Below, piece after piece: positions 20,514-46,716 of a stretch of DNA of 64,000 nucleotides (position 1 is the stretch's first letter; each line of letters starts with the position of its first letter). Source of the DNA: Psychrobacter sp. I-STPA6b. Its GTDB lineage: Bacteria > Pseudomonadota > Gammaproteobacteria > Pseudomonadales > Moraxellaceae. The position numbers and the translations under genes were made by a program. The stretch is taken from the NCBI RefSeq assembly GCF_020662265.1, contig NZ_VEWM01000063.1, positions 372,001 through 436,000 of the forward strand. Reading direction: 5' to 3'. A model generated the notes under the pieces. It searched no databases. It saw only the letters and a list, made by a program, of their open reading frames with translations, and was not told the origin of the DNA.

Positions 20514-21161
20514 TTATACCAACTCATTAAACACCCAAGGTGTTTTTTGTTGCATCTTCTGTTCATAGGCTTTGATGGCATCACTTTGTTGTAGTGTCAA
20601 ACCAATATCATCTAGTCCATTAAGCAAGCAATGCTTGCGAAACTCATCAACATCAAATGCGTATTCTGTGCCATCAGGTGTGATAACGACTTGTCGCTCA
20701 AGGTCAGTCGTTAATTCATAACCCTCATTGACAAAGACTTCTGTAAATAGTTTGTCAATAATCTCTTCAGACAGAACAATAGGTAACATACCATTTTTAA
20801 AGCAATTATTATAGAAAATATCTGCAAAACTTGGTGCAATCACGGTGCGAAAGCCATATTCTGATAATGCCCACGGCGCATGCTCACGGCTAGAGCCACA
20901 ACCAAAGTTTTTGCGTGCCAGTAGAATGGTCGCACCTTGATATTGTGGTTTGTTTAATACAAAATCAGGATTTACAGGACGTTTGCTGTTATCTTGCCCC
21001 GGATAACCTTCATCAAGATAGCGCCATTCATCAAATAAGTTGACACCAAAACCAGTGCGCTTAATGGACTTTAAAAACTGCTTGGGAATGATTTGGTCAG
21101 TATCGACATTTGAGCGGTCTAGCGGGCAAACGATACCTGTTTGGGTGTTATATGCTTGCAT
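20514..21161 (-). CDS. leuD: 3-isopropylmalate dehydratase small subunit
   Basis: A 215-residue swivel domain of isopropylmalate isomerase, which pairs with LeuC. Signatures are [12 protein letters not shown] (about 24), [20 protein letters not shown] (about 80) and [22 protein letters not shown] (about 108). The start is [22 protein letters not shown]. It follows leuC with one small gene between them. Confidence 0.97.
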
Positions 21162-30506: not shown

Positions 30507-32228
30507 CTAACTCAAGTCCTCAAACTTTAAGCCAAACTTTAACAAATACTTACGCAATCTATCACTATCATTAGGATTTTTAAGTTTGTCACGAGAGTTG
30601 GCGTACAAATACCGTCCTGCCGATGCTTGTGACTTTTGCCCTTGACACACAGTAATGACATACGCCAACTGTACCGCTTCAAACGGGTCAATATCTTGGC
30701 GTACTTGTTTACTGACGTATTGCTCTAATATCTGCTCGGTGGACTGCTCTAATGACGTTGCTATTTGTTTGGGCGTTTGGCTATTTTTAGTTATATTATT
30801 TTTGTTTAATGAGCTTTTGCTTAGGCTATTTTTGGAAAAAGATAAAGAGGAAGATAGATTATCAGTCGGCAATTCCCATAAATCTATTAAGCGTCGGATT
30901 TCTGCTTTGACATCGGGCAATCGTATCACTTTGCTATCACTTAGCGTGGTCATACGAATCATACTAGCGGATAAATCCCGAAAGTTACCCTGCCATGTCG
31001 CCTCATGACTCATGGCAAATGCTTCATACAATCGTCTTGCCTCACGCTCAAAACGGTACTGCTGTTGTTGCTCACTGCCAAGCCGTGCCAACTCATAATC
31101 AATATTGGCAGGCAAATCCTCTAACCTATCTTTTAGCGACGGCAAAAAGAACGTCCATGTATTGAGCCGAGCAAACAAATCGGCACGAAACTCACCATCT
31201 GCCACCGCTTGACGCAAGTCCTTATTTGTCCCTGCCATCAGTTGAAACGACACAGATACTGGGGTATCACTGCCCACAGGATAAAATCGCTGTTCTTCTA
31301 ATGCGGTAAGTAACATCGCCTGTTCATCAAGCCCAAGCTCACCAATTTCATCTAAAAATAGAACCCCACCATCAGCTGACTTTAGCAAACCATCACGACT
31401 GCTATTTGCCCCTGTAAACGCCCCTTTAACATGACCAAATAATACACTCATGGCGGTATCGCCACGCAACGTAGCACAGTTGACTTCCACAAACTGACCA
31501 AGTGAAGCCCCTGCTTGCACACCTGCTTTGTCTTTTTTTAGGGTGTAAATTTGCGTTGCCAATTGCGACTTACCTGCCCCTGTTTCACCAATCAATAAAA
31601 TCGGTGCTGTTGAGCGTGTGGCAACTTTTTCAATATCACTAATCAGCTTTTGATAGGCTTCGTTTTGGGTAACCAGATTGGCTTGCAAAGTTTGCCAATG
31701 CTCGGCTTTTTCTGCCTCAAATCTTGCCCGTAGGCTGTCGTAACGGGACACATCAAGGTCAATAATTTGATAGCACCCTTGCGGGTCGGACTGCTCAGGC
31801 TTAGGACAAGGTGAGCTTTGAATCAGCTTAGCAGGAATAAACCCCGCCTCAACCAACAAAAACCAACAAATCTGTGCTACATGCGTACCTGTGGTCAGGT
31901 GCAATAAATACTGCGTATCCTCAGCAAAATCAAATCCTGTGACAAAATCATATAGCTCAGCATAGACTTGGGCAAAATCCCACGGCGATGCCAGCCTAAC
32001 TTGATGCCCCACCACCTGCGTAGTGGGGCAAACTTGGGTAATATCACCCGCCACCACATCATACATACGCTGGTCTTTGGGGCTATAGAGAATATGCAGT
32101 TCATCTACCAGCATATCATCATGTAGACATAGGCTCACCGTTGGTCGCCAGCGTTGCCAACGCTTATCATTAAAGCCTTTATCTAATGTCGTACCCAAAA
32201 AGCCAATGATGGCGGTTTTTTTACTCAT
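30507..32228 (-). CDS. rtcR: RtcR, sigma-54-dependent activator of RNA repair genes
   Basis: A 573-residue bEBP. Residues 1-180 form the RtcR regulatory domain of the CARF type (IIGFLGTTLDKG, ILYSPKDQRMY, HLTTGTHVAQICWFLL). RtcR is known to sense tRNA-derived fragments. The AAA+ domain spans about 185-430, with Walker A LIGETGAGKSQLA, the sigma-54 loop GAFTGANSSRDGLLKSADGG and Walker B GVLFLDEIGEL. The C-terminal DNA-binding region ends near 573 (QLAYVITVCQGQKSQASAGRYLY). A Ser/Asn/Lys-rich linker near 455-480 is a local expansion. It should activate the two sigma-54 promoters at 36294 and 40974, although it is 4-10 kb away and on the other strand. Confidence 0.93.
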   Translation of the reverse strand: MSKKTAIIGFLGTTLDKGFNDKRWQRWRPTVSLCLHDDMLVDELHILYSPKDQRMYDVVAGDITQVCPTTQVVGHQVRLASPWDFAQVYAELYDFVTGFDFAEDTQYLLHLTTGTHVAQICWFLLVEAGFIPAKLIQSSPCPKPEQSDPQGCYQIIDLDVSRYDSLRARFEAEKAEHWQTLQANLVTQNEAYQKLISDIEKVATRSTAPILLIGETGAGKSQLATQIYTLKKDKAGVQAGASLGQFVEVNCATLRGDTAMSVLFGHVKGAFTGANSSRDGLLKSADGGVLFLDEIGELGLDEQAMLLTALEEQRFYPVGSDTPVSVSFQLMAGTNKDLRQAVADGEFRADLFARLNTWTFFLPSLKDRLEDLPANIDYELARLGSEQQQQYRFEREARRLYEAFAMSHEATWQGNFRDLSASMIRMTTLSDSKVIRLPDVKAEIRRLIDLWELPTDNLSSSLSFSKNSLSKSSLNKNNITKNSQTPKQIATSLEQSTEQILEQYVSKQVRQDIDPFEAVQLAYVITVCQGQKSQASAGRYLYANSRDKLKNPNDSDRLRKYLLKFGLKFEDLS

Positions 32229-36293: not shown

Positions 36294-36310
36294 TTGGCAC
36301 AGGGTTCGCA
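36294..36310 (+). promoter_or_regulatory. Sigma-54 promoter of ro60 and the Y-RNA array
   Basis: TTGGCACAGGGTTCGCA has GG at 36296-36297 and GC at 36308-36309, 12 bp apart as in the consensus TGGCAC-N5-TTGC. It matches the rtcB promoter (TTGGCACGCTGTTCGCA) in 13 of 17 positions. Transcription should start near 36321 and depend on RtcR. Confidence 0.88.
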
Positions 36311-36434: not shown

Positions 36435-38147
36435 ATGAATACTGACCTAATTAACACTGATAAAAACAAAACCAACACCACCAACCAAGCAGGGGGCGTT
36501 GCCTATCAGCTATCGTCCAAGCAAGCGTTGGCTCAACTGGTCAATACTGGCACGCTCAATCACACCTTTTATGCCAATGCTCAAGACCACCTAAGCGAAG
36601 TGCTTGACCTTGCCAAACAGGTCGATAGTGAATTTTTGGCAAAGTTGGCAATTTATGCCCGTAAACACAGCCATATGAAAGACATGCCTGTATTGCTATT
36701 GGCGATTTTGTCCAATCGTGATGATGGTAAACGCTTGTTTGAATTGGCATTTTCGCAGGTGATTGACAATGGCAAACAGTTACGCAATTTTGTGCAAATC
36801 ATGCGTTCTGGGGTGACGGGACGCAAATCGTTGGGGTCATTGCCCAAAAAAATGGTCAATGGTTGGCTTACTTCTGCCAATGATTACCGTTATGTCAGTG
36901 CCAGCATTGGCAATACGCCAACCCTAAAAGATGTGCTAAAAATGACTCACCCCAAGCCTGAGGACGCTCGCCAAGAGGCGTTGTTTAAATGGACGCTTGA
37001 TAAAGAGTTTGATAACGACAATCTACCCGAATTGGTGCAACAACTGTTGGCATTTCAAGCAGATAACCGTCAGCCTTTGCCTGATGTGCCGTTTCAGCTA
37101 TTGATGGCGTTACCGCTGACCGATGAGCATTGGCAACAAATCGCCTCGCAAGGTAGCTGGCAAATGCTCCGTATGAACCTAAATACCTTTGCTCGTCATG
37201 GGGTATTTAAGGTCGCAGGTATGGCGGAACGTATCGCCGAGATGCTCACCGACCCGCAAGCCATCGCCAAAAGTCGTGTGTTTCCATATCAGCTATTCAC
37301 CACATGGTCGGCTTTAAATGACGATGTGCCAGAGGTGGTCAAAAACGCACTACGCACCGCCATGAATACTGCTCTTGCCAATGTGCCAAGCATTGCCGGC
37401 AATGTGGTGGTGGCTGTCGATGTGTCGTGGTCAATGTCATCGCCTGCCACTGGTCATCGACGTGGGGCGACATCAAAGCTACGTTGTGTGGACGTTGCCT
37501 CGCTGTTTGCCTCCGCCATTTATCAGGTCAATCCGCACACCCGTATTATTCCATTTAATACGCAGGTGTTAAAAGAGATTAATCAGCATACGGATAAAAA
37601 AATCAGTGTTGCAAAAAATGAGGATTCATCAAAAAGCACTGCTAAAACTAATGATAAAAGCAATGATAAAACCAACGCCATAGATGTCTTTAAAACCACT
37701 CAATATTTGTCCTCATTTTTAGGTGGTGGTACAGCGATTTCTGCCCCATTGGTAGAATTAAATAAAGAAAAGGCGGACGTTGATGTGATGATTTATTTTT
37801 CTGATAATGAATCATGGGCTGACCAGTTTACTGACCCTCGCCCTCGTTATGGTAGTACTGGACTGATGAAAGAATGGGAAAAACTAAAAAAACGTTGTCC
37901 CAATGCTAAGCTGATTTGTGTGGATATTCAGCCTTATACTTCTAGCCAAGCATTAGAGCGTAAGGATATTTTAAATATTGGTGGCTTTAGTGATACCGTT
38001 TTTCAATTAATTGACTGGTTTTGTCAGGGTAAACTTGATGGTAGCCATTGGGTTAATGAAATTGAAAAAATAGAAATTACTGATAAAGTCAGCCAAAATA
38101 ATCCTGATACAAAAGGCAAAGTAGAAAGCAATAAAAAAGCGTCATAA
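36435..38147 (+). CDS. rsr: Ro60/TROVE-domain protein (Rsr)
   Basis: A 570-residue Ro60 orthologue; the ATG at 36435 is preceded by AAAGGAAA and gives the expected N-terminus. The TROVE domain (HEAT-like ring) runs from about 15 to 330 with signatures FLAKLAIYARKHSHMKDMPVLLL, FVQIMRSGVTGRKSLGSLPK and FARHGVF. The von Willebrand A domain follows, with the MIDAS motif DVSWSMSS (about 332) and YFSDNES near 475. A Lys/Asn/Asp/Ser-rich insert (about 400-430) lies in the vWA domain. Ro60 binds Y RNAs and the ends of misfolded RNAs and, in bacteria, works with PNPase. It is directly followed by the Y-RNA-like array. Confidence 0.95.
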   Translation: MNTDLINTDKNKTNTTNQAGGVAYQLSSKQALAQLVNTGTLNHTFYANAQDHLSEVLDLAKQVDSEFLAKLAIYARKHSHMKDMPVLLLAILSNRDDGKRLFELAFSQVIDNGKQLRNFVQIMRSGVTGRKSLGSLPKKMVNGWLTSANDYRYVSASIGNTPTLKDVLKMTHPKPEDARQEALFKWTLDKEFDNDNLPELVQQLLAFQADNRQPLPDVPFQLLMALPLTDEHWQQIASQGSWQMLRMNLNTFARHGVFKVAGMAERIAEMLTDPQAIAKSRVFPYQLFTTWSALNDDVPEVVKNALRTAMNTALANVPSIAGNVVVAVDVSWSMSSPATGHRRGATSKLRCVDVASLFASAIYQVNPHTRIIPFNTQVLKEINQHTDKKISVAKNEDSSKSTAKTNDKSNDKTNAIDVFKTTQYLSSFLGGGTAISAPLVELNKEKADVDVMIYFSDNESWADQFTDPRPRYGSTGLMKEWEKLKKRCPNAKLICVDIQPYTSSQALERKDILNIGGFSDTVFQLIDWFCQGKLDGSHWVNEIEKIEITDKVSQNNPDTKGKVESNKKAS

Positions 38148-38233: not shown

Positions 38234-38287
38234 AATTAAATTTTAAAAAATTAAGAGCGTGTAAAATACTAACACAATCTTAATATT

Positions 38288-38407
38288 GGTCAAAATGCAG
38301 GTGTGATTACATGGGGTCTAAAAACGCGGGCTTTATGTTAATTTCAGTAAAATGAACTGACATAATGCAACGCATTAGATTTAATCATACCAAACTTTGG
38401 TTTGACC
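38288..38407 (+). ncRNA. Y-RNA-like RNA 1
   Basis: Outer stem GGTCAAA (38288-38294)/TTTGACC (38401-38407). Internal loop: ATGCAG on the 5' side and CAAACTTTGG on the 3' side. Inner stem GTGTGATTA (38301-38309)/TAATCATAC (38382-38390), then CAT. The centre has a hairpin TTATGT...ACATAA with CAGT/ACTG inside, not an evident T-arm. It shares the plan of the other five but has lost, or never had, the tRNA-like module. Confidence 0.6.
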
Positions 38408-38518
38408 GTATTTAGAGGAATAATTTAAGAAATGCAACAAGGAAAGTGAGTGCAAGTACTACGACCTGTAGGCTAAACAAGCTTGACACCGTTACATGAA
38501 TTAAATTTTTCTCTAGTT
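38408..38518 (+). other. Spacer in the RNA array with possible remnant unit
   Basis: It contains an AATGCAAC motif near 38431 and a matching GTTGC at 38516-38520, GTTACAT near 38491, and a short hairpin CTAC/GTAG near 38459. These hint at a decayed unit, but no TTTTGG side or inner stem is found. The next spacer (38651-38733) likewise has AATGCAG and a GCAAATAA/TTATTTGC hairpin. Confidence 0.35.
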
Positions 38519-38650
38519 GCTAACAAAATGCGGTAACAGACTACATTGGTAAAGCGAAAGCGATGAGGTTCAAATCCTCAATTATTGGCACAAACACTGC
38601 TAATAATTTGTCTGTTACGGGTTTTTATAAGCCCACTTTGGTTTGTTAGC
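38519..38650 (+). ncRNA. Y-RNA-like RNA 2 (permuted tRNA-like, no D-arm)
   Basis: Outer stem GCTAACAAA (38519-38527)/TTTGTTAGC (38642-38650). 5' loop ATGCG; the 3' side ends CCCACTTTGG and carries an extra hairpin GGGTTTTTATAAGCCC. Inner stem GTAACAGAC (38533-38541)/GTCTGTTAC (38610-38618), then TACAT. T-arm GAGG-TTCAAAT-CCTC (38565-38579). A closed acceptor-like stem ATTATTGGCA (38581-38590)/TGCTAATAAT (38598-38607) follows. A mini GCGAAAGC hairpin precedes the T-arm. Confidence 0.75.
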
Positions 38651-38733
38651 CTCCCACTTTGGTGGGAACATTGTGATGGTAATAAATGGCAACAAATGCA
38701 GTAAATGCAAATAAAGTTATTTGCCAAACTAAT

Positions 38734-38870
38734 ACCTAATAAGGAATGCCGATAAGACTACATAGATAATTTATTGGTTGGGGGTTCGAGTCCCTCCTGT
38801 CTTTTTAGACAGTAGCTCAATTTGGTAGAGCAGTAAAAAATGTCTTATCACTTTTGGTCTTTATTCGGGT
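38734..38870 (+). ncRNA. Y-RNA-like RNA 3 (complete permuted tRNA-like module)
   Basis: Outer stem AATAAGG (38738-38744)/CTTTATT (38859-38865), extended by ACC/GGT. Loop AATGCC opposite ACTTTTGG. Inner stem GATAAGAC (38751-38758)/GTCTTATC (38842-38849), then TACAT. T-arm GGGGG-TTCGAGT-CCCTC (38780-38796). Acceptor CTGTCT/AGACAG closed by TTTT (38797-38812). D-arm TAGCTC...GGTAGAGCA (38813-38832). The order T-arm, acceptor, D-arm is a tRNA opened at the anticodon and sealed at its ends, as in YrlA. Confidence 0.88.
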
Positions 38871-38894
38871 GTTAAATTAACAAATGCTTTATTA

Positions 38895-39067
38895 CACAAT
38901 ATAAATGCAGGTTAAATTACATGATTGTCGGTGGTTCGACCCCACCTTAGTGAGTGGCGTCAGTCATTCATTAATAGCTCAGTTGGTAGAGCCTCAACCG
39001 TATCACCAAGCTGACTGCTAAGGCTGGCAAAGTGGTACAAATTTAACCCCCTTTTGGTTATGTTGTG
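38895..39067 (+). ncRNA. Y-RNA-like RNA 4 (permuted tRNA-like, long acceptor loop)
   Basis: Outer stem CACAATATAA (38895-38904)/TTATGTTGTG (39058-39067). Loop ATGCA opposite CCCTTTTGG. Inner stem GGTTAAATT (38910-38918)/AATTTAACC (39040-39048), then ACAT. T-arm GGTGG-TTCGACC-CCACC (38930-38946). 7-bp acceptor-like stem TTAGTGA/TCATTAA with a 14-nt loop. Consensus D-arm AGCTCAGTTGGTAGAGC (38976-38992). About 45 nt of extra sequence after the D-arm is unmatched in the other units. Confidence 0.85.
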
Positions 39068-39123
39068 ATTATATTGCAGTTGCTTTTAAGTTGTTTGACT
39101 TGTTTTATTATCTGTTTGCAAAT

Positions 39124-39275
39124 AGGGTATGCAGTAAAGAATACCGATAAGACTACATCGAATAGTACCGCACTGGTTTGAGCGCTCACTGTCTACTTTT
39201 ACTTAATGTAGGCAACAGCTCAAGCAGTAAAGCAGTACAATGTCTTATCACCTTTGGTCTTTAAGGTATGCCGAG
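39124..39275 (+). ncRNA. Y-RNA-like RNA 5 (diverged tRNA-like module)
   Basis: Outer stem TAAAGA (39135-39140)/TCTTTA (39258-39263). 5' loop ATACC instead of ATGC, opposite ACCTTTGG. Inner stem GATAAGAC (39146-39153)/GTCTTATC (39242-39249), then TACAT, identical to RNA 3. Acceptor TGTCTAC/GTAGGCA (7 bp with one G-U) closed by an 11-nt loop. Degenerate D-arm CAGCTCAAGCAGTAAAGC. The T-arm (GGTTTGAGC) no longer pairs well. GGTAT/ATACC can form an alternative 5' hairpin. Confidence 0.75.
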
Positions 39276-39328
39276 TAAGTAAATAAGATTGATAAAATAA
39301 ACAACATCATTAATCATCACAACCCTTG

Positions 39329-39436
39329 CCCCAATACTAGCAAATGCTGATAAGAGTACATCTAACTGTAAATTAGAATCCCTAACTTAGGGACATACTC
39401 TCTTATCAATTTTGGTTGCTGGTATTGGGGTTTTTT
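39329..39436 (+). ncRNA. Y-RNA-like RNA 6, whose outer stem is also the terminator
   Basis: Outer stem CCCCAATACTAGCAA (39329-39343)/TTGCTGGTATTGGGG (39416-39430), 14 of 15 paired, followed directly by TTTTTT (39431-39436). Loop ATGCT opposite AATTTTGG. Inner stem GATAAGAG (39349-39356)/CTCTTATC (39400-39407), then TACAT. The centre has two small hairpins, CTAA/TTAG and TCCCTAA/TTAGGGA, rather than a clear T-arm. It closes the array. Confidence 0.8.
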
Positions 39437-39489: not shown

Positions 39490-40521
39490 ATGCCAAGCAA
39501 CGCCTATTTTTATAATCATATCGACCCACATGGGCAATGGCAGTTTACCCAAATTGAGGTAAGTAAAGACTTTACCCCCTATTACCGCTTGCTAACTGGT
39601 GGCACAAAACAACGGTATTTACTTGCCAATGATACTTCTACTAACAACCCAAATCATGGGCATACTCTCTATTGGGGGCGAGTGTCCGCAGATTATTATG
39701 ATATTTTCTTTTTGCGACACAATAAGCCTTTAGCTCGTGAATTTATGCCTGTGCGTCCGATTACCTCGAGTGATATTGAAACCTTTAAACAAGCCAACTC
39801 TGCAAATCCAAATCAATATTGGGCAGATTTTTATGCTCAAGCACTCATTGCCAGCCCTGCAACCATCTTACATCAAGGGCAATGGCGAATAACAACAGGG
39901 GTAACAGAAAAACTAGACAGATATGCCCCAATAGATTGGTGGCGAGAATGTGTTTATCAGTTTGAATATCACAATGAGCCAACAGCTTGCTTTAGGTGGG
40001 AAGACCATCACAATAACCCTTTCCCCCTAAAACCACCACCCAAAGCAGATGATGGTCGGGTTAAATGGTGGCGAAAAAAGATACGAGAAAATGCTTGTCC
40101 GCCAATATTATTATGGTGGCAACGCAATTTATTAAATCATATCGTCATTGATGGGCATAGTCGATGGCTGGCTTATCAATTAGAAAATAAAAAGCCTGAG
40201 GTGTTGGTTATCAGTGCCTTTAAAACCACCAATTATCCTTATATTGATGACCCTAAAAGACGCTTACAAGTCTTGCAAAGTTTAAAGCAATATGTGAGTA
40301 ATAAAAACAATGAAAAATTCATAAACATAAAGCATATCAATGACATATTAATAAAAACCTATCACACTAATATACCCGACCATGACGCCGTTACGGTTGG
40401 CAAACCCATCAAAGATTTAGACGAGCGTTGGGAAAGGGAAGCGACAACATTATTAAGTCATATCAACCCTAATGATGGTTTTGAAAAAGGCGATTTAGAA
40501 TATTTTTTGGCAGAGGATTAA
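39490..40521 (+). CDS. ParB/Srx-like domain protein
   Basis: A 343-residue protein. Residues about 205-235 (PPILLWWQRNLLNHIVIDGHSRWLAYQLE) match the DGHxR core of the ParB/sulfiredoxin fold, which can act as a nuclease, NTPase or ADP-ribosyl-type enzyme in different families. The N-terminal 200 residues are rich in Trp and Tyr and not recognised. It lies after the Y-RNA array terminator and before the rtcB promoter, so it is transcribed separately or by read-through. The initiation site is weak. Its place between Ro60/Y RNAs and RtcB suggests an RNA-linked role (inference). Confidence 0.7.
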   Translation: MPSNAYFYNHIDPHGQWQFTQIEVSKDFTPYYRLLTGGTKQRYLLANDTSTNNPNHGHTLYWGRVSADYYDIFFLRHNKPLAREFMPVRPITSSDIETFKQANSANPNQYWADFYAQALIASPATILHQGQWRITTGVTEKLDRYAPIDWWRECVYQFEYHNEPTACFRWEDHHNNPFPLKPPPKADDGRVKWWRKKIRENACPPILLWWQRNLLNHIVIDGHSRWLAYQLENKKPEVLVISAFKTTNYPYIDDPKRRLQVLQSLKQYVSNKNNEKFINIKHINDILIKTYHTNIPDHDAVTVGKPIKDLDERWEREATTLLSHINPNDGFEKGDLEYFLAED

Positions 40522-40973: not shown

Positions 40974-40990
40974 TTGGCACGCTGTTCGCA
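40974..40990 (+). promoter_or_regulatory. Sigma-54 promoter of rtcB
   Basis: TTGGCACGCTGTTCGCA, GG at 40976-40977 and GC at 40988-40989 (12 bp apart). TGGCACG matches the consensus -24 block exactly. Start of transcription should be near 41001, 64 nt before rtcB. Confidence 0.9.
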
Positions 40991-41064: not shown

Positions 41065-42297
41065 ATGCAACCAGCCAACCATAATGTTATCCAACAAGGT
41101 GGAACACCAATCCGTCTATGGACGCAAGGTGTGCCAGTCGATGAAAAAGCCCATGACCAGCTTATCAAAGCCTCAAAAATGCCATTTATCTATAAATGGT
41201 TGAGCGTAATGCCTGACGTGCATGTCGGTATTGGGGCGACCATAGGTAGTGTTATCCCAACCAAAGAAGCCATTATCCCATCAGCCGTTGGCGTGGATAT
41301 TGGTTGTGGCATGATGGCGGTGCAAACTACCTTAAACGCCAATGATTTGCCTGATAATTTGCATGGACTACGTTGCGAGTTGGAAAAAGCCATTCCGCAT
41401 GGACGTAGCAAATCACGTGGGCGTGGTTCAAATCGTGATAAGGGTGCGTGGTCAAAACCAACTGATACCGTACTAGACGGTTGGAAAACGCTAACCGACG
41501 ATTTTAACCTATTGTGCGAAAAACACCCTCGTCTAAAAAATACCAACAATCTAAATCACTTAGGAACACTGGGTACAGGTAACCACTTTGTTGAGATTTG
41601 CCTTGATGAGCATCAGCAAGTATGGATTATGCTACATTCTGGTTCTCGTGGTGTGGGTAATGCCATTGGGCGTTATTTTATTGAGTTGGCTCGTGAGGAT
41701 ATGCGTAAATGGTTTATCAACTTACCTGATAAGGATTTGGCGTATTTTCCTGAAGGCACACAGCATTTTGATGATTATTGGTTTGCGGTGGGTTGGGCAC
41801 AACGCTTTGCCTTTAAAAACCGTGAAATAATGATGGAAAATGCCATCAAAGCACTGCGAGAAGTGATTAACAAACCTTTTGACGCTAAAGTAAAAGCGGT
41901 GAATTGTCATCATAATTATGTGGCAAAAGAGGAACATTATGGCGAAGAAGTGTTTGTCACTCGCAAAGGGGCGGTACGAGCCAAAGTCGGTGAATACGGG
42001 ATTATCCCCGGTTCGATGGGGGCAAAGTCCTTTATCGTACGTGGAAAAGGCAATGAAGAGTCGTTTTGCTCTTGCTCACATGGGGCAGGTCGAGTGCTAT
42101 CACGTACCGAGGCAAAAAAACGCTTTACTGTCGCTGACCAAATCGCCCAAACCGAAGGCGTGGAATGTCGTAAAGATGCGGAAGTGATTGATGAAATCCC
42201 ATCGGCTTATAAAGACATTGAAGCGGTAATGCACGCCCAACGAGATTTGGTAGAAGTGGTGCATACGCTACGCCAAGTGGTGTGTGTGAAGGGGTAA
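41065..42297 (+). CDS. rtcB: RNA ligase RtcB (3'-phosphate to 5'-OH)
   Basis: A 410-residue GTP- and Mn-dependent ligase that joins RNA 2',3'-cyclic phosphate/3'-phosphate ends to 5'-OH ends, as left by tRNA-cleaving toxins. Metal and active-site motifs are intact: MPDVHVGIGATIGSV (about 50), VDIGCGM (about 78), GTGNHFVEI (about 172), LHSGSRGVGNAIG (about 192) and CSHGAGR (about 335), which carries the histidine that is guanylylated. RBS AAGGA is upstream. It is driven by its own sigma-54 promoter. Confidence 0.97.
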   Translation: MQPANHNVIQQGGTPIRLWTQGVPVDEKAHDQLIKASKMPFIYKWLSVMPDVHVGIGATIGSVIPTKEAIIPSAVGVDIGCGMMAVQTTLNANDLPDNLHGLRCELEKAIPHGRSKSRGRGSNRDKGAWSKPTDTVLDGWKTLTDDFNLLCEKHPRLKNTNNLNHLGTLGTGNHFVEICLDEHQQVWIMLHSGSRGVGNAIGRYFIELAREDMRKWFINLPDKDLAYFPEGTQHFDDYWFAVGWAQRFAFKNREIMMENAIKALREVINKPFDAKVKAVNCHHNYVAKEEHYGEEVFVTRKGAVRAKVGEYGIIPGSMGAKSFIVRGKGNEESFCSCSHGAGRVLSRTEAKKRFTVADQIAQTEGVECRKDAEVIDEIPSAYKDIEAVMHAQRDLVEVVHTLRQVVCVKG

Positions 42298-42306
42298 AAA
42301 AACTAC

Positions 42307-42564
42307 GGGCATGTAGGCAAACAGGGGACGCCACCACCCAAAACTTGTATGTTATTGGTGGTCTAGGTAAAACTAGGTGTAATGGGATATTTTTAATTTA
42401 ATAAATTAAAAACGAAGTGGGTTTGATAGTCGGGTTAAAAGTGCTTTGCTGGCTCTGAAAACGGGTCTACCATTGCACCAGTTTTGCCAATATCATTCTC
42501 GGCTGTACGACTAAAAACGGCAGTTATTACATTGATGCGGGTTCGACTCCCGTCATGTCCACCA
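42307..42564 (+). ncRNA. 258-nt tRNA-like RNA with encoded CCA, downstream of rtcB
   Basis: GGGCATG (42307-42313) pairs with CATGTCC (42554-42560) to make a 7-bp acceptor stem with one G-U, followed by A and CCA (42562-42564). TA at positions 8-9 and GGC...GCC (about 42316-42332) fit a D-arm. ACCACC/GGTGGT fits an anticodon-position stem with a loop of about 18 nt. The T-arm is GCGGG-TTCGACT-CCCGT (42537-42553). Between them lie about 180 nt with hairpins (AT-rich stem 42390-42412, AAAAC/GTTTT, GCTGT/ACGGC). It is not tmRNA (too short, no TGGATTCGACGGG block or tag frame) and not a normal tRNA. It starts 9 bp after the rtcB stop. Confidence 0.65.
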
Positions 42565-44755: not shown

Positions 44756-45214
44756 ATGAAACTTGCTGAAGCGTTATTAATCCGCAGTGATATGCAAAAA
44801 AAACTTGCCCAAATCAAAGGACGTATCCGTAATAATGTGAAAGTCCAAGAAGGTGATACACCAAGCGAAGACCCAAATGAGCTATTATTACAAGCCAGCC
44901 AAATTATTAGTGAACTTAATCAGTTGGTAGAGCGTATTCATCGCACCAATGCGACTGCCACCACTGAAAATGGACAGTCTATGCTGACACTATTGGTTGA
45001 GCGTGATATGTTAGAAACACGCCATAAACTGTTGCTCGATGCCATTGAAGCAACTCGACAAGAAGAAGACCGTTATAGCTATCGTGAAATTAAGTGGAAC
45101 GTGATAGTATCGGTATCTGCATTGCAAAAACAAGCTGATGACCTTGCAGTGAAAATCCGCCAGTTAAATTTGCTGATTCAAGCGAGTAATTGGCAAATTG
45201 AATTGCTTGATTAA
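44756..45214 (+). CDS. DIP1984-family (septicolysin-like) helical protein
   Basis: A 152-residue all-helical protein. MKLAEALLIRSDMQKKLAQIKGRI, NELLLQASQIISELNQLVERIHRTNA and EARHKLLLDAI-like ETRHKLLLDAIEATRQEEDRYSYREIKWN are the family signature. DIP1984 proteins form oligomeric coiled-coil assemblies of unknown role. AAAGGAAAC precedes the start. It is the fourth gene downstream of rtcB. Confidence 0.8.
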   Translation: MKLAEALLIRSDMQKKLAQIKGRIRNNVKVQEGDTPSEDPNELLLQASQIISELNQLVERIHRTNATATTENGQSMLTLLVERDMLETRHKLLLDAIEATRQEEDRYSYREIKWNVIVSVSALQKQADDLAVKIRQLNLLIQASNWQIELLD

Positions 45215-45313
45215 GCTTTTTAATGGTCATCATTTCATTATTCATTTTAAAAGTTTGGTTATTGTTGATAGTCAAATATTTAACTATTTAGTATCAATAA
45301 TAACAACCGCTTT

Positions 45314-45494
45314 GGAACCGATTGGGCGAATGTCAGACCCCGTATTACCTCCACAGCAGGGGGTTGAAAATATACTGTAGTGGCTTGGCAACACGTTGTG
45401 GGCAGGCGTATTTTTTTACTTTTCATGCCTCGCACTTGTTACCCTGTACAAGGTACTTTTTAGACCTTACTACCAGACATTGACAGTCGGTTTC
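45314..45494 (+). ncRNA. Candidate structured RNA before the AAA+ gene
   Basis: GGAACCGATTG (45314-45324) pairs with CAGTCGGTTTC (45484-45494), 11 bp with two G-U pairs. After a small internal loop, AATGTC (45329-45334) pairs with GACATT (45476-45481). About 140 nt between hold further short hairpins (CAACACGTTG, TACC/GGTA). The 356-bp gap between 45215 and 45570 has no reading frame. It may be a third RNA of the locus or a long leader element of the following gene. Confidence 0.5.
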
Positions 45495-45570
45495 ATTTTA
45501 TTTTTTTAATACATTATACATTGCTTATTAATAGGCAAGATATTGATTAAACCATTAGGTTATTTATTTT

Positions 45571-46716
45571 ATGAAGATTTTAGAGTCAAAATATTATCGT
45601 CCTCGTATGCTATTACAATTTGAAGAATATGGTAACACCATTCATGCTGTAGCTGATAAGGATATGTATCGCCAATCTAACAATCCTTTTGCTTATTTAT
45701 TAAGTGACTTATTGCCCAAAATTTATTTGTCTGGCGAAAAGATTGTTATTAATAAAGAGCAACTACAGGATTTTACGGAATGTACAGATTTTTATACAGT
45801 AGAATACTCTGCTGAATATAATATCTGCTATCAAGAAGAGCGTTGTTTTTATCATCCTACATTGCATATTTTTATTGTGACAGAAGAAGATTTGTCCGAC
45901 GAATATGGGCGGGATATGTTTAATCAAAATGTATTAAGAGTCAATAATGTTTATTACGATTCTACCAATCCTAAAAGCCTAGAATCTGTAAAATACTTCT
46001 TTGATGAGTATTTACAAAAATATGTTTCTAATGAGGCAAAAGTATCTATTTTATTAAAAGAGCGTCATGGCTTTGTGTTTAAAACTCAACGTATTAAACC
46101 ACTTACCATTAACTTAGATACCATGTATAACGATGATTTTTTACCTGTTCATCAACATATTAAGTCTCAACTAACCGATAGTAAAAAAGGTTTGGTATTA
46201 TTACATGGTATTGCAGGCTCAGGAAAAACTAATTATATCAAGTGGTTAACCAGCCAAGTGCCAAGCAAGCAGTTTATTTTTGTACCGACCAATATGATTG
46301 GCTATTTAACAGACCCTGAAATGATGTCTATGCTGGTAGACAATAAAAACTCTGTATTGGTGCTAGAAGATTGTGAAAATTATATTAGTGAGCGCTCTAG
46401 TGGTGATTTAAATACTGATGTGGTATCTACTATTTTAAATATCGCTGATGGTATGTTATCCGATATTTTAGAGTGTCAGTTTATTTGTACTTTTAATGCA
46501 GATATTTCACGGATTGATAGCGCATTATTACGTCAGGGACGTTTGATTGCTGAATATAAATTTAAAGAGCTGGATATTAAGAAAGCCAATGCTTATTTAA
46601 AATCACATGATATTGACAAAACGGTAGACAAACCGATGTCATTGGCAGAGTTAACCAATATTGACAATGCCAGCTATAAAGAACAGGTTAAGGAAAAGAA
46701 AATTGGATTTTTATAA
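45571..46716 (+). CDS. AAA+ ATPase associated with RtcA
   Basis: A 381-residue protein. The N-terminal 200 residues are unrecognised (alpha/beta, with YYDSTNPKSLESVKYFFDEY). The AAA+ core has Walker A LLHGIAGSGKTNYI (about 208), Walker B SVLVLEDCEN (about 265), sensor 1 FICTFNAD (about 307) and RIDSALLRQGRLIAEYKF (about 315) as arginine-finger region. It resembles the BCS1/proteasomal-type small AAA ATPases that remodel proteins. The last 14 bp overlap the rtcA start, indicating coupled translation. Confidence 0.82.
   Translation: MKILESKYYRPRMLLQFEEYGNTIHAVADKDMYRQSNNPFAYLLSDLLPKIYLSGEKIVINKEQLQDFTECTDFYTVEYSAEYNICYQEERCFYHPTLHIFIVTEEDLSDEYGRDMFNQNVLRVNNVYYDSTNPKSLESVKYFFDEYLQKYVSNEAKVSILLKERHGFVFKTQRIKPLTINLDTMYNDDFLPVHQHIKSQLTDSKKGLVLLHGIAGSGKTNYIKWLTSQVPSKQFIFVPTNMIGYLTDPEMMSMLVDNKNSVLVLEDCENYISERSSGDLNTDVVSTILNIADGMLSDILECQFICTFNADISRIDSALLRQGRLIAEYKFKELDIKKANAYLKSHDIDKTVDKPMSLAELTNIDNASYKEQVKEKKIGFL

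What the first reader, a model, noticed from the sequence alone, without database searches (positions are those of the whole stretch)
38288..39436. Tandem array of six Y-RNA-like ncRNAs after Ro60, with permuted tRNA modules
Seen: six units within 1.15 kb share one architecture: outer stem, internal loop with ATGC on the 5' side and (T)TTTGG on the 3' side, 8-9 bp inner stem, then (TA)CAT. The stem sequences differ between units but pairing is kept, which is covariation inside one genome. Units 3 and 4 hold perfect T-arms and D-arms, unit 2 a T-arm and acceptor, unit 5 a degenerate set, units 1 and 6 other hairpins. The order T-arm, closed acceptor, D-arm is a circularly permuted tRNA with the anticodon arm replaced by the long stem. 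Known: bacterial Y RNAs (YrlA) have a Ro-binding stem made by the two ends and a tRNA-like module. Inference: this is an expanded, diversified Y-RNA family, with the ATGC/TTTTGG loop as Ro60-binding site and different modules for different partners or targets.
Basis: partly seen in the sequence, partly recalled or inferred. Interest (0 to 1): 0.92.

Follow-up and report, generated by a model that had tools for sequence, protein, structure and literature searches.

The report
Six-unit Ro60 Y-RNA array
Next to a bacterial Ro60 gene lie six small RNA genes that share one stem but carry different, partly tRNA-like heads; they look like bacterial Y RNAs, a known kind, here in a longer series than usual.

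Summary
Six tandem units (38287-39431) follow a Ro60/Rsr gene in an RtcR-RtcB-RtcA locus of a Psychrobacter-like genome. All six have outer stem, internal loop and inner stem; unit 5 has ATAC, not ATGC. Shuffles gave at most one unit (0 in 991, 1 in 9 of 1000). Covariance models built without this locus find units 1, 3, 4, 5 and 6; the other genome hits listed are tRNA loci. Unit 2 is found only by the scan and is kept in a close relative. Unit 3 passes Rfam's YrlA cut-off (71.3 bits); the others do not. The order T-arm, closed acceptor, D-arm is that of Rfam's YrlA model, so it is not new. Eighty other Ro60 loci hold a median of 4 Y RNAs by model plus scan (11 of 80 have six or more) or 3 by model alone (9 of 80). 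The array is long but ordinary in kind. The closest locus (Ro60 97% identical) has eight units. Ro60 binding, PNPase tethering and separate partners for separate heads are inferred, not shown. Matching each head to one tRNA failed.

The parts
36295..36309 (+). sigma-54-like promoter TGGCAC-N5-TCGC upstream of Ro60
   Evidence: one of two such sites in the window, both strands
36435..38147 (+). Ro60/Rsr (TROVE and vWA_Ro60 domains)
   Evidence: Pfam; PDB 2nvo Rsr E 8.9e-17; NCBIfam Rsr equivalog matched below its cut-off
38287..38408 (+). Y RNA unit 1, hairpin head without tRNA arms
   Evidence: scan; model R2 33.6 bits, E 6e-8
38519..38650 (+). Y RNA unit 2: short hairpin, T-arm and closed acceptor, no D-arm; extra hairpin in 3' loop
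   Evidence: scan; counterpart at L045 8023-8157; not found by R2, and by R1 only at chance level (5.4 bits)
38738..38865 (+). Y RNA unit 3: T-arm, closed acceptor, D-arm (YrlA)
   Evidence: Rfam RF02553 71.3 bits; R2 97.4 bits
38895..39067 (+). Y RNA unit 4: T-arm, closed acceptor, D-arm, additional hairpin
   Evidence: scan; R2 47.9 bits; RF02553 28.1 bits, below cut-off
39135..39263 (+). Y RNA unit 5: degenerate tRNA-like head, ATAC in the 5' loop
   Evidence: scan; R2 46.9 bits
39328..39431 (+). Y RNA unit 6: short hairpin head; long outer stem followed by a T-run, probable terminator
   Evidence: R1 41.5 bits, E 1.5e-10; R2 36.6 bits; fold
30507..32228 (-). RtcR, sigma-54 activator
   Evidence: PF06956 E 2e-71
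40975..40989 (+). second sigma-54-like site, upstream of rtcB
41065..42297 (+). RtcB RNA ligase
   Evidence: PF01139
46670..47755 (+). RtcA RNA 3'-terminal phosphate cyclase
   Evidence: PF01137

Best explanation
This is an array of six bacterial Y RNAs, the RNA partners of the Ro60/Rsr encoded just upstream. Shown: the conserved stem-and-loop handle, the position, heads of different types, the Rtc operon context. Inferred: RtcR senses RNA damage and a sigma-54 promoter upstream of Ro60 drives a transcript through Ro60 and the array; the RNA is cut into single Y RNAs; each is held by Ro60 through the handle; heads with T- and D-arm act as tRNA mimics that tether or gate other machinery, as published for PNPase; heads without tRNA signature give Ro60 other partners or only gate it.
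For: Rfam YrlA hit over cut-off for unit 3. Window-free models hit units 1, 3, 4, 5 and 6; of 12 genome hits, 5 are in the array and 7 on tRNA loci (150 of 605 first-look candidates were scored). Scan: 214 plus- against 5 minus-strand hits in 80 Ro60 loci. RNAalifold on 57 units: 29 pairs, 22 with both-sided changes. Sigma-54-like sites within 700 bases upstream of Ro60 in 46 of 79 loci against 6 of 330 control windows. RtcR, Ro60, RtcB, RtcA present; one PNPase gene in the genome. Published: rsr-yrlBA-rtcBA is under RtcR and sigma-54 in Salmonella (PMC9879122, PMC7790460, passages).
Against: No expression or binding data. Unit 4 (28.1 bits) is below Rfam's cut-off and units 1, 2, 5 and 6 have no Rfam YrlA hit. 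R2 scores of units 4 and 5 (47.9, 46.9) lie below what one tandem tRNA pair reaches (49.2 bits). Unit 2 is supported by neither model. Between window and L045, 8 stem substitutions break pairs, 11 keep them on one side, none on both. The Ro60 is far below NCBIfam's Rsr cut-off (67.7 against 900 bits).
Confidence: 0.9

Rival explanations
1. Only units 3 and 4 (perhaps 2) are working Y RNAs; units 1, 5 and 6 are decaying duplicates that keep stems for a while.
For: Copy number differs between close relatives: L045 has eight scan-called units, of which three are tandem duplicates 76-78% alike where the window has one. Unit 5 lost ATGC and the T- and D-loop signatures.
Against: All six keep both stems and the 3' loop end. 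Units without T/D signature are common in other loci: 42 short and 45 other of 234 scan-called units. Unit 6 differs from its L045 counterpart by one substitution and one gap column.
Confidence: 0.2
2. The array is a remnant of a tandem tRNA gene cluster and only looks like Y RNAs.
For: RF02553 and R2 also score tRNA pairs (44.9 bits on two tRNA genes of G104; 49.2 bits), since the T-arm of one tRNA plus the D-arm of the next resembles the head.
Against: ARAGORN finds no tRNA in the window; heads are enclosed by the handle; units 1 and 6 have no tRNA arms yet match the models; all 241 R2 hits at E up to 1e-4 in 72 loci lie on the Ro60 strand.
Confidence: 0.03
3. The tRNA-like heads are decoys that occupy tRNA-cleaving or tRNA-modifying enzymes during tRNA damage, rather than tethers for PNPase.
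For: Operon context of tRNA damage; PMC7790460 (passages) raises competitive inhibition of the nuclease. Heads of units 3 and 4 keep T- and D-arm sequences.
Against: No anticodon arm in the heads. Heads do not follow single tRNA identities: T-arm and D-arm best matches mostly disagree. Cleavage of YrlA itself was not detected in that paper, which fits an inhibitor but not a cleaved decoy.
Confidence: 0.12

Closest known systems
YrlA (Rfam RF02553), bacterial Y RNA
   Same: Handle with AATGC and a CTTG-like 3' loop end, T-arm, closed acceptor, D-arm; next to Ro60
   Different: Only unit 3 passes the cut-off; units 1, 2, 5 and 6 have other, partial or degenerate heads
Salmonella rsr-yrlBA-rtcBA operon
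   Same: Rsr, Y RNAs, RtcB, RtcA, RtcR, sigma-54 control (PMC9879122, PMC7790460, passages)
   Different: Two Y RNAs there, six here; other ORFs lie between array and rtcB and between rtcB and rtcA here
Deinococcus radiodurans Rsr/Y RNA/PNPase (RYPER)
   Same: Ro60 relative (2nvo); Rsr on the lower stem of the Y RNA (PMC4726728, passages)
   Different: PNPase tethering untested here
Y RNA arrays of Psychrobacter sp. I-STPA10 (L045) and Acinetobacter (L046-L048)
   Same: Tandem units directly after Ro60
   Different: 7-8 units by model plus scan; 6-7 by model alone

Membership tests
bacterial Y RNA / YrlA (RF02553) | Score above the family's gathering cut-off (69 bits) | tested here: inconclusive
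   met by unit 3 (71.3); not met by unit 4 (28.1); units 1, 2, 5, 6 no hit at E up to 5. So by Rfam's own rule only unit 3 is YrlA
bacterial Y RNA / YrlA (RF02553) | Lower stem with conserved internal loop, formed by the two ends | tested here: met
   all six by scan; five of six by window-free models
bacterial Y RNA / YrlA (RF02553) | Encoded beside a Ro60 orthologue | tested here: met
   Ro60 36435-38147
bacterial Y RNA / YrlA (RF02553) | At least one Y RNA per species with a tRNA-like domain (recalled from the abstract of Chen 2014, not held) | tested here: met
   units 3 and 4
bacterial Y RNA / YrlA (RF02553) | Binds Ro60/Rsr; tethers PNPase | not testable with these tools
   only gene presence: PNPase
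Ro60/Rsr protein | TROVE and vWA domains over Pfam cut-offs | tested here: met
   37.0 (cut-off 23) and 44.1 (27.7)
Ro60/Rsr protein | NCBIfam Rsr equivalog NF041674 cut-off 900 bits | tested here: not met
   67.7 bits: a divergent relative, not an equivalog by that model
tRNA genes | Recognised as tRNA | tested here: not met
   ARAGORN 0 genes in the window

The most novel reading that the evidence does not exclude
Y RNA arrays are a standing, ordered kit of interchangeable adapters: one Ro60 is supplied under RNA damage with several RNA classes (short stem-loop, T-arm only, T-arm plus D-arm, degenerate tRNA-like) that route it to different partners, and the kit grows and shrinks by tandem duplication, up to eight in Moraxellaceae.
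Probability: 0.3. Interest if true: 0.75.

Novelty: new member of a known kind. Interest (0 to 1): 0.48.

Why it matters
Published work that I saw names bacterial Y RNAs in few studied species (Deinococcus, Salmonella, Mycobacterium smegmatis; PMC4726728, passages), and what units without a tRNA-like head do is open. A locus with six heads on one handle, and relatives with one to eight, makes that question directly testable by deleting units one at a time.

Tried and rejected
One head, one tRNA: heads were aligned to permuted tRNAs of the genome (38 distinct tRNA sequences found in the fetched stretches) or, for all Acinetobacter loci, of one Acinetobacter genome (38). The heads of units 3 and 4 are far above 60 shuffles each (z 10.6 and 12.2), unit 2 moderately (4.8), units 1, 5 and 6 not. 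In 13 heads the best T-arm and best D-arm tRNAs mostly disagree; rank correlations run from -0.39 to 0.27. Rejected. Two heads elsewhere look different by eye: a class II-like head in L046/L047 unit 5 and a Gln-like D-arm in L051 unit 4; too few to claim.

Last unit as general terminator: T-rich 3' flank in 30 of 72 last units against 43 of 163 others, median outer stem 8 against 9; weak as a rule, though unit 6 here looks like a terminator.

A seventh unit at 38411-38518 (absent from L045): no model or scan hit, no relative among the fetched loci other than this genome's own; not claimed.

Low Rfam YrlA scores as evidence: rejected, since a 44.9-bit match lies on two tRNA genes. The other matches of that size were not checked one by one.

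Literature: nine searches; in their listings and in the passages I opened I saw no paper on more than two tandem bacterial Y RNAs. Chen 2014, Sim and Wolin 2018, Wang 2018 and Burroughs and Aravind 2016 are not held under the ids I tried (those of the last recalled), so larger numbers may well be in print.

Full report
What is there. Downstream of Ro60 (36435-38147) and before an ORF at 39490 lie six units of one plan. The first scan (outer stem, ATGC-like 5' loop, inner stem) gave 34 plus- and 47 minus-strand hits in the window, mostly chance; with TTGG in the 3' loop five were left, all in this region. Allowing a longer 3' loop added unit 2, and also one lower-scoring plus-strand hit at 21018 and four minus-strand hits elsewhere. 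In 1000 dinucleotide shuffles of the region one scan gave no unit in 991 and one in 9, against six real; a second gave none in 985 and one in 15, against five real.

Independent models. I built two covariance models without any row from the window or its closest relative L045. R1, from 38 of 39 short units picked by the scan, finds unit 6 (E 1.5e-10); with filters off the next array unit, unit 1, has 9.8 bits and units 2, 3 and 4 are at chance level, since this short model does not fit long heads. R2, from 39 hand-picked units with T- and D-arms, finds in the window units 3 (97.4 bits), 4 (47.9), 5 (46.9) and 1 (33.6), and otherwise one 9.5-bit match at 42537. In the whole genome it lists 12 matches: five in the array, now with unit 6 (36.6 bits), and seven on tRNA loci (150 of 605 first-look candidates were scored). 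Unit 2 is supported by neither. As a control I gave R2 52 of the 56 fetched tRNA stretches; the best scored 49.2 bits, so the scores of units 4 and 5 alone would not separate them from tRNA pairs; their handles, and the absence of tRNAs from the window, do. Rfam's YrlA gives unit 3 71.3 bits (cut-off 69), unit 4 28.1 and the rest nothing.

Covariation. 57 units were aligned, chosen by me from the 111 T/D-motif hits: tRNA genes, near copies and variant D-arms were left out, and for the Moraxellaceae rows the ends followed the scan, so those rows are not independent of the pairing. Predicted structure: outer stem, inner stem, T-arm, closed acceptor, D-arm; 22 of 29 pairs have both-sided changes. 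The 3' end of window unit 4 is misaligned there. Between window and L045, which are close, there are 11 one-sided pair-keeping changes, none on both sides, 8 breaks and 5 pairs with gaps: no added support.

Comparison. The strict scan gave 214 hits on the Ro60 strand and 5 on the other; a looser scoring gave 304 against 65 at its lowest threshold, so scan-called units include some false ones. R2 on 72 loci gave 241 matches at E up to 1e-4, all on the Ro60 strand; 39 of its own training units come from these and the other eight loci. Units per locus by R2 alone: 1 in 5 loci, 2 in 15, 3 in 24, 4 in 20, 5 in 7, 6 in 6, 7 in 3, median 3. By R2 plus scan: 1 in 1, 2 in 7, 3 in 24, 4 in 24, 5 in 13, 6 in 5, 7 in 3, 8 in 3, median 4 (hits at E up to 1, and 8 of 287 hits dropped as tRNA-type). 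The longest are Psychrobacter sp. I-STPA10 (8; 6 by R2), Acinetobacter L047 (8; 6) and L048 (8; 7), L046 (7; 6), Labrys L053 (7; 7) and an acidobacterial MAG L056 (7; 7, dispersed). In the family sample, 10 of 199 genomes have a Ro60 match, one of them weak, and of the sampled genomes of the window's genus only the window's own.

Head types. By motif, 234 scan-called units of 78 loci (the window's six included, heads over 150 bases left out) split into 80 with T- and D-arm, 67 with T-arm only, 42 short and 45 other; 62 of 78 loci have at least one with both arms. Where both occur, the first short unit precedes the first T+D unit in 29 of 30 loci, and the first T-only unit precedes it in 29 of 41; related species (many Variovorax) are counted apart. 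The window's series is other, T, T+D, T+D, other, other. L045 carries three tandem duplicates (76-78% alike) where the window has one unit, and lacks a stretch of about 110 bases found between units 1 and 2 here.

Context and mechanism. RtcR, Ro60, RtcB and RtcA are all here. The only two sites in the window fitting a strict sigma-54 pattern lie upstream of Ro60 and of rtcB; a looser pattern occurs upstream of Ro60 in 46 of 79 loci against 6 of 330 control windows. [quoted passage not shown] passages). Reviews (PMC4726728, PMC8394870; passages) state that Rsr binds the lower stem and that the tRNA-like domain holds PNPase in RYPER. From this I infer co-expression of Ro60 with six RNAs and binding of each by its handle. 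Processing, binding and partners are not shown.

Verdict. A real, longer-than-average array of bacterial Y RNAs; known kind. What remains interesting is the variety of heads, their repeated order in other loci and the change of copy number between close relatives.

Noticed in passing
window 42419-42564 (+): tRNA-like stretch ending in a T-arm and CCACCA just after rtcB; weak tmRNA match (15.4 bits, below cut-off 47), no ARAGORN tRNA; nearly identical at L045 12160-12305. Could be the tRNA-like RNA of RNA-repair operons (recalled, not checked).
   Followed up: partly
window 38411-38518 (+): About 110 bases between units 1 and 2, absent from L045, with an imperfect stem and an ATGC; no relative found among fetched loci of other genomes.
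   Followed up: partly
window 39490-40521 (+): 343-aa ORF between array and rtcB with no Pfam or NCBIfam match; its DNA is about 95% identical in L045.
   Followed up: partly
window 44756-46716 (+): DIP1984/DUF6847 protein and an AAA ATPase between rtcB and rtcA.
   Followed up: no
L050 8129-8270, L051 8111-8242: Two Acinetobacter loci share a head with T-loop TTAGA and D-like arm CGCTTAAAGCAAAAGCG, without the usual tRNA signatures, somewhat like window unit 5.
   Followed up: no
L077 7852, L101 8042, L124 7852, L086 8076: Y RNA-like units with a shared variant D-like arm GCTCTCTGGCACGAGC.
   Followed up: no
L156 123-292; L187 (G104:C5:191300-191660): Tandem tRNA genes match the YrlA model and R2, which hints that the permuted head could have arisen from a tandem tRNA repeat (inference).
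   Followed up: no
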